A DNA stretch of 64,000 bases from an uncultured Schlesneria sp. Its GTDB lineage: Bacteria > Planctomycetota > Planctomycetia > Planctomycetales > Planctomycetaceae. Where the stretch lies: assembly GCA_903871875.1 (NCBI GenBank), contig CAIQIR010000106.1, positions 1 to 64,000 on the forward strand, written 5' to 3'. A program made the position numbers and the translations under genes. Positions 28,764 to 33,515 of the stretch are shown here, one piece after another. Each line of letters opens with the position of its first letter. The stretch's first letter is position 1. Below the pieces are notes generated by a model, which saw nothing but the letters and a program-made list of their open reading frames with translations, did no database searches and was not told the DNA's origin.

Positions 28764-29315
28764 TTATTTCTTCTCAGGTTCGGCGGGCTGTTTTTCGGTG
28801 TGATCATGGTCATGATCTGAACCGTCGAGGTGATAATCGATGTGACCCAAATAGGGCTTGTCGCCGATTGTGATTCGCAAATCGCCATGCAGGAATCCGG
28901 CGTCCAACAGGGTGTGCACGAGGGCATCATCGACGAGTTCAAACTTGGTGGTTTTTCCTTCGGCATCGCCGGTTTGCGGCGCGGCTTTCAGGGTGAGAGC
29001 GTCTTTGCCTTCGGGTGTGATCGTGACTTCGGTCGCTACGACAGGTTCTGGAGTTTTCGCGTCTTTGCCCAGGACATAGAGTGTGATCGCGTGTGAATCG
29101 TGATCAACCACAATCTCGGCGTGGTATTCTTCTTCACCGAGTTCGACCAGACCACCGCCGTGTGGTCCCTTCTCGCCGTGTTCGTGATCATGTTCGGTGA
29201 CAGGTTCTGCTTTTTTCAATTGGTTTACAGGGGCATATTCAGATGTCTTGCCGCAACCAATTGATCCACAAGCCACACCGATGGCGACGCTGACGATCAA
29301 ACTGAACCGAGCCAT
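28764..29315 (-). CDS. His-rich putative lipoprotein (metal-binding)
   Basis: The 183-residue product starts at ATG 29315, which has AAGGAA 9 bases upstream; the 29417 start adds 34 residues that hide the leader. The leader ends at a lipobox-like GSIGC (Cys about residue 18), followed by a spacer and a His-rich stretch EHDHEHGEKGPHGGG. The centre (about 60-150) is a compact beta domain with EYHAEIVVDHDSHAITLYVLG. The tail carries DHDHDHTEKQ. His clusters at both ends suggest binding of a divalent metal such as zinc, copper or nickel, but the metal is not known. Confidence 0.8.
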   Translation of the reverse strand: MARFSLIVSVAIGVACGSIGCGKTSEYAPVNQLKKAEPVTEHDHEHGEKGPHGGGLVELGEEEYHAEIVVDHDSHAITLYVLGKDAKTPEPVVATEVTITPEGKDALTLKAAPQTGDAEGKTTKFELVDDALVHTLLDAGFLHGDLRITIGDKPYLGHIDYHLDGSDHDHDHTEKQPAEPEKK

Positions 29316-29939
29316 TTCAGATATTCCTTGAGAATTGAATGAGGAGAATAGATTCTTCTCGCAAGTATGAATCAGCGCATTTCGAAAAGCGATTTCCTTG
29401 GCTGCTCTTGAAGTCATTCGGACGACCCGAAAACCAATTGATATCTCGTGTTCGCCAACGTTTCATTCCGACAGGTGTTGAGGAAACAAACTTCCGGTGC
29501 CAATCATCCGACGATTCGCGAATTTGTGCCTGAAAAACAGCATTATTTTTGTCGCTAACACGGGTGGGATTATACTGACTTCTGTAGGATTTGACAGGAA
29601 TTACTCGCCAGAATCCGCAATCCGGAACCGCCCGTCTGCGGTGTGAATTTCTCGTGAACCCGCTGCCAACGCGATCACGAATCGATCTGCCTTCCCTGAA
29701 CGGCCCACGCGGTAAGTCAGGGCTGCAATCGCTCGGATCTTTGCAAACGAATCACTCTTCCCAGTTTTTTGTTGTTCTCGGAAGCATTGGTTAGACCTCG
29801 ATCCGTCAGCTTGTTTGGGTTCTGGCCACTCCCCCCTAGCCCAGTTCAGGGTTCCTCAGCGATCCCAAACTTCGTTCTTGTCGTTCGGTTCGTTATGCTT
29901 CCCGGCTGCAAGGAAGGGATTTTTTAAGAAGGATGCAGC
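29316..29939. other. Divergent intergenic region
   Basis: 624 bases between the His-rich lipoprotein (minus) and the parvulin gene (plus). A TATACT at 29571-29576 could be a -10 box, but its -35 region is poor. An AAGGA ribosome-binding site precedes ATG 29940. Nothing else is seen. Confidence 0.4.
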
Positions 29940-32198: not shown

Positions 32199-33515
32199 TC
32201 AGTGATCGTGCCGGTGGTCGTGATCATGGTCGTGATCATGGTCGTGATCATGGTCGTGATCATGGTCGTGATCATGGGCACAATCATGATCGTGATCGTG
32301 TTCATGCTCACATTCGTCGCCGTCTTCGTCGTCCTCTTCCTGTTCGACGATAAAGGCGATTTGCGCGGCCATGTAGACGTCGCGTAGCGGCAGGCCGTGG
32401 GCTTTTGCGATTTCGACACAGTCGTCGTATTCGGGTGTAAAAATCACCGGCTCGTCACCGCGCCAGCCGACCTTGCCTTTAATCGATCCAAAGTCCGTTT
32501 CCACGGTATAAGCCATTCGTTCACGGACGGAACGTTGAATGCGTTGACGGCGGATCCCGAACGTCTGCGTTTCGCGGAACAAGATGGCTTCCAGCTTGCT
32601 GACATCGTCCAGCGAACTGATCACGCTTAACATGACTGCGGGACGATCCTTCTTCATTTGAATGGGTGTCGTATAGACGTCCAGCGCTCCCGCCGCCATC
32701 AACAACCGCTTCGTATAGCCCAGAACTTCTCCCGTGACATCATCGAGGTTCGTTTCGAGCAGAATCACGCTGTCCCCCGAGGTTTCGACGCCCGCGGTTT
32801 CCCCAATGATCAGCCGCAACACATTGGCTCGATCGTCGAACTCGCGAGTTCCCGCGCCGTAGCCGATCGTTTCGATCGTCATTTCGGGCAGTGAATCGGT
32901 GAATTGGCTAACCAAAGTTTTCACGATGGCTGCTCCCGTGGGAGTGGTCAGTTCCGCATTGACGGGAACATCAGCCAGAGGAATCCCTTTCAGCAATTCA
33001 GCCGTACCCGGGGTGGGAATCGCGCAGGTTCCATGAGCGATTTTCACCTGTCCGCGGCCCGTGGGAACGCGACTACAGAGCAATTCTTCGACATCCAGCC
33101 AGTCCATTCCGATTGCGACGGCAACGATATCGACGATCGAATCGATGGCACCCACTTCGTGGAAATGGACTTGATCGACGGTCGATCCATGCACCTTGGC
33201 CTCGGCTTCGGCCACCGCGTGGAAGATTCGCAGCGCGAGATCACGTTGATTGTCGTTCAATCCTTCCGACTTGTTGATGATCTGCCGGATGTCACTCAGA
33301 TGACGATGGGCGTGCTGTTCGGGATGTTCCACGCGAAAATGTTTGGCGCGAAATCCGCCTCGGTCCACTTCTTCCAGGTGCAGTTTGACACCAGGCAAAT
33401 TCAGCGATTCGATGCCGGCCCGAACGATCTCTAGATCAAGTCCCGCATCGACAAGGGCAGCGACCGTCATGTCGCCGCTGATTCCCGAGGCACAGTCCAA
33501 ATAAGCGATTCGCAT
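32199..33515 (-). CDS. larC: LarC nickel-pincer cofactor chelatase with His-Asp tail
   Basis: LarC inserts nickel into the pincer cofactor (pyridinium-3,5-bisthiocarboxylic acid mononucleotide) used by lactate racemase and related enzymes. The 438-residue product begins with the family start MRIAYLDCASGISGDM and has VHFHEVGAIDSIVDIV, HGTCAIPTPGTAELL and LLETNLDDVTGEVLGY. The last 40 residues are almost wholly His and Asp, with the alternating part encoded by a 12-base tandem repeat. That tail suits nickel storage or delivery. No larA, larB or larE is nearby, so the client enzyme is elsewhere. malQ lies upstream on the same strand, 119 bases away. Confidence 0.92.
   Translation of the reverse strand: MRIAYLDCASGISGDMTVAALVDAGLDLEIVRAGIESLNLPGVKLHLEEVDRGGFRAKHFRVEHPEQHAHRHLSDIRQIINKSEGLNDNQRDLALRIFHAVAEAEAKVHGSTVDQVHFHEVGAIDSIVDIVAVAIGMDWLDVEELLCSRVPTGRGQVKIAHGTCAIPTPGTAELLKGIPLADVPVNAELTTPTGAAIVKTLVSQFTDSLPEMTIETIGYGAGTREFDDRANVLRLIIGETAGVETSGDSVILLETNLDDVTGEVLGYTKRLLMAAGALDVYTTPIQMKKDRPAVMLSVISSLDDVSKLEAILFRETQTFGIRRQRIQRSVRERMAYTVETDFGSIKGKVGWRGDEPVIFTPEYDDCVEIAKAHGLPLRDVYMAAQIAFIVEQEEDDEDGDECEHEHDHDHDCAHDHDHDHDHDHDHDHDHDHDHRHDH
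32217..32276 (-). repeat. 12-base tandem repeat encoding His-Asp
   Basis: Five exact copies of GTCGTGATCATG stand head to tail at 32217-32276; imperfect relatives continue to about 32304. On the minus strand each copy encodes His-Asp-His-Asp at the C-terminus of LarC. Such a perfect short tandem repeat is prone to change in copy number by slippage. Confidence 0.9.

What the first reader, a model, noticed from the sequence alone, without database searches (positions are those of the whole stretch)
32199..33515. LarC with a His-Asp tail built by a 12-base tandem repeat
The last 40 or so residues are almost only His and Asp, and five exact 12-base copies show recent expansion. Tail length probably varies between strains. 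The tail suits nickel storage next to the cofactor-loading site.
Basis: partly seen in the sequence, partly recalled or inferred. Interest (0 to 1): 0.55.

Follow-up and report, generated by a model that had tools for sequence, protein, structure and literature searches.

The report
Nickel-loading enzyme with histidine-rich tail
A bacterial enzyme that puts nickel into a cofactor ends in a floppy tail of alternating histidine and aspartate, grown from a short DNA repeat; relatives keep such a tail, or a similar insert elsewhere in the protein, so it probably helps to hold the metal.

Summary
Window 32199-33515(-) encodes a full-length 438-aa LarC, nickel insertase of the nickel-pincer nucleotide (NPN) pathway. 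Its last 35 residues hold 17 His and 14 Asp; five exact tandem copies of a 12-base unit lie at 32217-32276.

All 36 own-family genomes (of 37) whose C-terminus could be read carry a His-rich tail, six single-contig genomes among them. Length, repeat unit and spacer residue differ between species while H-x-H-x persists; tails of 15 genus members are 35-67 aa. His-codon comparisons give 591 synonymous against 83 single-base nonsynonymous differences. AlphaFold predicts disorder from residue 398.

Wider result: among 239 distinct LarC proteins, every 20-aa stretch with at least 8 His lies at one of two sites, the C-terminal tail (83) or a loop at residues ~50-80 before the HRxL motif (40), never both. 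Exclusivity is not significant after correction for descent.

Best explanation: an attached metal reservoir, probably for nickel, feeding LarC, like the His-rich ends of HypB, UreE and SlyD. Metal binding, specificity and closeness to the insertion site are inferred, though a His-rich Haloferax LarC is reported to co-purify on Ni-NTA. A ZIP transporter in this genome shares the peptide HDCAHDH, so zinc stays open.

The parts
32199..33515 (-). larC, 438 aa, nickel insertase of the NPN pathway, LarC1 and LarC2 in one frame
32202..32339 (-). C-terminal extension, residues 393-438: acidic linker then His/Asp array with two Cys; predicted disordered from residue 398
32215..32297 (-). 12-base tandem array, 6.9 copies by TRF
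32217..32276 (-). five exact tandem copies of CATGATCACGAC (HDHD)
32268..32288 (-). HDCAHDH peptide shared with the cytosolic-loop region of a ZIP transporter of the same genome
33300..33326 (-). residues 64-72 (HPEQHAHRH): the short loop where other lineages carry a long His-rich insert instead of a tail

Best explanation
The tail is a disordered His/Asp metal-binding reservoir fused to the nickel insertase LarC. It captures and buffers divalent metal, most likely Ni(II), close to the enzyme that puts one Ni into each cofactor. The array grows and shrinks in frame, by 6-, 12-, 18- or 24-base units, probably by replication slippage. Selection keeps the H-x-H-x character rather than an exact sequence or length. 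In other lineages a His-rich insert in the residue ~62-72 loop probably serves the same end. Shown: sequence, family-wide presence, rough protein-level constraint, predicted disorder, two alternative sites. Inferred: metal binding by this tail, preference for nickel, handover to the active site, slippage as the mechanism.
For: Tail in 36 of 36 readable own-family genomes, six of them single-contig assemblies; units and lengths differ; 591 synonymous against 83 single-base nonsynonymous His-codon differences; all His-rich windows of 239 distinct LarC fall at two sites; at least 6 changes of state for the tail and 20 for the loop on the tree; disorder from residue 398; LarA-, LarB- and LarE-type genes present in the own genome. 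Literature: a His-rich LarC of Haloferax volcanii co-purifies on Ni-NTA and had to be deleted (PMC12853182, passages); HypB with 24 His binds 9 Ni per monomer (PMC7055735, passages); UreE loses Ni capacity when its His-rich tail is cut (PMC13044922, passages).
Against: No metal binding was measured here. 54 of 96 readable LarC of other families in the phylum sample have neither segment, and L111 lacks a tail inside the group, so it is dispensable for LarC as such. LarA, LarB and LarE occur in tailed and untailed relatives alike. The same peptide sits in a ZIP transporter, which points to metals other than nickel. Ni-NTA retention shows only that His-rich protein binds nickel resin.
Confidence: 0.62

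Rival explanations
1. The tail is a general metal sponge: it buffers zinc or other metals, or protects LarC from wrong metals, and does not feed nickel insertion.
For: His-rich HypB regions also bind Zn, Cu, Co and others (PMC7055735, passages). The peptide HDC[AG]HDH recurs in ZIP transporters of the genus. 33 of 80 distinct tails contain Cys.
Against: The segments were studied here only on LarC; it is an insertase that needs nickel, and in the own genome the (Hx)4H pattern was found, besides LarC, only at two other loci, both in frames that look non-coding.
Confidence: 0.22
2. The tail is neutral or nearly so: slippage makes it, nothing removes it.
For: Repeat unit and length turn over quickly; many LarC do without it.
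Against: His codons differ mostly at the silent site (591 against 83); the segment is in 36 of 36 readable family members; His-rich segments recur at a second site on the same enzyme.
Confidence: 0.08
3. The tail is a charged docking or solubility element for partner proteins, and metal is incidental.
For: Acidic linker before the array in the genus; five loci of one group end their tails in a Lys run followed by His (L113, L115, L116, L117, L121).
Against: Strict alternation of His with D, S or G (808, 214 and 79 of 1,217 HxH triplets) fits metal ligation better; the spacer changes while His stays.
Confidence: 0.08

Closest known systems
LarC nickel insertase (PF01969; PDB 6bwo LarC2, 12bi full length)
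   Same: Same family over the whole body; both LarC models over cut-off; LarC2 fold
   Different: Carries a 46-aa His/Asp tail; the L. plantarum plasmid LarC read here has a short 5-aa end and a 34-aa loop region with 5 His, L. paracasei 41 aa with 11 His
His-rich LarC of Haloferax volcanii (HVO_2381)
   Same: A LarC called histidine-rich, co-purifying on Ni-NTA (PMC12853182, passages)
   Different: Its His-rich site was not read here; the papers seen treat it as a contaminant
HypB with His-rich N-terminal region
   Same: His-rich region on a nickel maturation protein, binding several Ni, role still debated (PMC7055735, passages)
   Different: GTPase for hydrogenase; N-terminal; no LarC homology in the Pfam scan
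UreE His-rich C-terminal tail
   Same: Variable, unstructured His-rich C-terminus adding Ni capacity (PMC13044922, passages)
   Different: Urease chaperone of another family
SlyD His/Cys-rich C-terminal tail
   Same: His- and Cys-containing tail binding several metals (PMC7055735, passages)
   Different: Peptidyl-prolyl isomerase of another family
RcnA with enlarged His-rich loop in cable bacteria
   Same: Lineage-specific growth of a His-rich segment in a nickel protein (PMC11247825, passages)
   Different: Membrane exporter, not a cofactor insertase

Membership tests
LarC nickel insertase | Full-length Ni_insertion domain, LarC1 plus LarC2 | tested here: met
LarC nickel insertase | LarC2 fold | tested here: met
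   Foldseek 6bwo_A, TM 0.93 by target length
LarC nickel insertase | NPN pathway partners (LarA, LarB, LarE) in the genome | tested here: met
   over cut-off in the own genome
LarC nickel insertase | CTP-dependent nickel insertion | not testable with these tools
   needs biochemistry
His-rich nickel-binding maturation proteins (HypB, UreE, SlyD type) | Disordered His-rich extension on a nickel maturation protein | tested here: met
His-rich nickel-binding maturation proteins (HypB, UreE, SlyD type) | The extension binds several Ni(II) | not testable with these tools
   inferred by analogy only
HypB, UreE or SlyD by descent | Domain homology | tested here: not met
   Ni_insertion is the only Pfam family at E 0.001
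Phase-variable contingency repeat | Unit not a multiple of three, switching frame | tested here: not met
   12-base unit in frame
Phase-variable contingency repeat | Length differs between strains of one species | not testable with these tools
   one genome per species held

The most novel reading that the evidence does not exclude
LarC carries an evolvable built-in nickel reservoir that can sit at either of two places, the C-terminus or the loop before the HRxL motif, but not both. Both would deliver metal to the same insertion site, and repeat slippage would tune the size of the reservoir to nickel supply, so that tail length becomes a readable record of a lineage's nickel budget.
Probability: 0.25. 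Interest if true: 0.62.

Novelty: new variant of a known kind. Interest (0 to 1): 0.45.

Why it matters
His-rich extensions are known on carriers of nickel for urease and hydrogenase. Here they recur on the insertase of the nickel-pincer cofactor, at two alternative positions and with repeated changes of state. That gives natural with/without pairs for testing what such segments do, a question still open for HypB (PMC7055735, passages). It also bears on how LarC obtains its nickel.

Tried and rejected
Rejected: assembly artefact (six single-contig genomes, G003, G015, G018, G021, G027 and G032, also carry tails). A second LarC copy (one match). A frame-shifted tail (the separate tail pieces of G002, G005 and G006 read in frame). 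A conserved larC-malQ operon (malQ was found only in the window's own locus and L002 among 110 loci, many with short flanks). Nickel supply to urease (no urease match in the own genome; [NiFe]-hydrogenase-like large subunits are present). Sod_Ni gave nothing, but its control did not ring either, so that is no evidence.

Mutual exclusivity of tail and loop (0 of 218 with both; 0 under each of nine threshold pairs) did not survive correction for descent: the independent-pairs test had too few informative pairs (median p 1). Rows dropped before that count: 261 loci scanned, 259 with LarC, 239 distinct, 21 of them not readable at one of the two ends.

Literature: searches, judged by listing, with passages read of PMC11796402, PMC11770544, PMC7118094, PMC7583248, PMC12853182 and PMC12366361. 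I found no paper on this tail or on the two alternative sites. The two founding LarC papers are not held, so absence is weak evidence.

Full report
WHAT IS THERE. The ORF at 32199-33515 on the minus strand encodes 438 aa. Residues 4-381 match Pfam Ni_insertion (479 bits, cut-off 22) and both NCBIfam LarC models are over cut-off. The nearest solved chains are full-length LarC (12bi and three more entries) and the LarC2 domain (6bwo). Residues 393-438 are an extension: an acidic linker, then His and Asp alternating, with two Cys. TRF reports a 12-base repeat of 6.9 copies at 32215-32297; five exact tandem copies lie at 32217-32276, against at most 3 copies of any 12-mer in 50 simulated windows.

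THE TAIL IN RELATIVES. LarC was found in 57 of 59 genomes searched, own genome included. In the own family all 37 have LarC; the C-terminus is readable in 36 (one contig ends at residue 292), and all 36 have a His-rich tail, one of them running into its contig end. In a second family 4 of 7 have one; in the remaining 13, from five families, none does. Records of the closest named relatives are Schlesneria, Planctomycetaceae. Of 80 named loci, 59 have a tail; the 21 without include two cut by their contig (L140, L157), L111, which is otherwise like the tailed group (63% identity), and mostly more distant LarC. One Myxococcales MAG (L151) has a tail. Within the 15 genus members tails are 35-67 aa with 12-27 His and longest (HD)n runs of 2 to 21. 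Over 80 distinct tails the range is 29-111 aa and 5-48 His; 33 contain Cys; the residue between two His is D 808, S 214, G 79 and others 116 times.

THE REPEAT. The longest tandem has different periods in congeners: 12 in the window, L006 and L007; 24 in L003, L005 and L008; 18 in L004 and L015; 6 in L009 and L010 (that scan tried multiples of 3 only). So arrays change repeatedly. Against pure neutrality, a His codon compared with the codon two further on was identical 626 times, synonymous 591 times and a single-base nonsynonymous change 83 times. The count leaves out multi-base differences, and slippage copies whole units, so it shows constraint only roughly.

A SECOND SITE. In a sample of 149 genomes of the phylum, drawn evenly by the tool, 117 had a LarC match. 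I hold 117 loci from 116 of these genomes (and three held before; one genome gave two loci; G143, a weak match without a listed place, was not fetched). Of the loci, 103 can be read at both sites: own family 7 of 7 with tail; of the 96 others 41 have a His-rich loop, 1 a tail, 54 neither; 14 could not be read at both. The rule for a loop was residues 56-76 grown to 29 aa or more with 6 His or more. The loop lies between predicted strand 55-63 and helix 73-81, just before the HRxL motif; the region reaches 142 aa in one protein and 40 His in another. It is also His-rich in plasmid LarC of L. paracasei and Rhizobium and in a split Paenibacillus LarC; the L. plantarum one (34 aa, 5 His) falls below the rule. 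Over all 239 distinct LarC, every 20-aa window with 8 or more His is at the tail (83 proteins) or at residues 50-80 (40), none elsewhere and no protein with both. By the looser rule, 218 readable proteins divide into 82 tail, 45 loop, 91 neither, 0 both; this set is rich in the own family and is no random sample. On a FastTree of the core columns the fewest changes of state are 6 for the tail and 20 for the loop, but exclusivity is not significant once descent is counted.

PATHWAY AND SETTING. The own genome has three LarA-type matches, one of them on the window's contig outside the window, and one LarB and one LarE over cut-off on other contigs. Among the 59 genomes LarA-type genes occur in 59, LarE over cut-off in 58 and LarB over cut-off in 57, tailed or not, so the tail does not track presence of the pathway. 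malQ is upstream of larC here and in L002 only. No urease was found; [NiFe]-hydrogenase-like large subunits were.

STRUCTURE. AlphaFold on 22 sequences gives mean pLDDT 83.7, pTM 0.57, and pLDDT under 50 for residues 398-438. Foldseek finds LarC2 first.

SHARED PEPTIDE. HDC[AG]HDH, sought as DNA in 15 genus genomes, occurs at 21 places in 13 genomes, with no hit for the reversed pattern. I assign 13 places to LarC, 7 to a ZIP-like transporter and 1 to a small protein; 12 of the 21 were translated, the other 9 lie in LarC positions. Pfam was run only on the own-genome ZIP (PF02535). In the own genome the LarC and ZIP copies share 24 identical bases in the same frame. Convergence and exchange cannot be told apart. 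This weakens a nickel-only reading.

MECHANISM. Most likely the tail loads several metal ions and raises the local nickel supply of an insertase. By the HypB figure (24 His, 9 Ni per monomer) 17 His might hold about 4-7 Ni; that is inference. Direct but thin support comes from Haloferax volcanii, where native LarC, called His-rich, co-purified on Ni-NTA and was deleted for that reason (PMC12853182, passages). Rivals are a general metal sponge, neutral slippage and a docking element.

LITERATURE. Searches listed nothing on this tail or on two alternative sites. Passages were seen of PMC11796402, PMC11770544, PMC13044922, PMC11247825, PMC7118094, PMC7055735, PMC12853182, PMC7583248 and PMC12366361; no paper was read whole. 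The two founding LarC papers are not held.

Noticed in passing
window 32268-32288 (-) and G000:C158:53537-53557 (L317): LarC tail and a ZIP transporter share HDCAHDH and 24 identical bases in frame; the peptide recurs in both gene families across the genus.
   Followed up: partly
window 28764-29417 (-): ORF of 217 aa with a signal-like start and His-rich stretches (DHEHGEKGPHGG, DGSDHDHDH), no Pfam family; perhaps a metal-binding lipoprotein.
   Followed up: partly
G049 and G057 (same class, group f5, genus g35): LarA-, LarB- and LarE-type matches but no LarC match in either genome.
   Followed up: no
L113, L115, L116, L117, L121: These tails end in a run of seven Lys followed by His.
   Followed up: no
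L294 166-1618: Paenibacillus plasmid LarC annotated as two genes, the first with a 95-aa loop region holding 36 His.
   Followed up: no
L111 1296-1361: LarC 63% identical to the window's with a 22-aa end without any His: a natural control for tail loss.
   Followed up: partly
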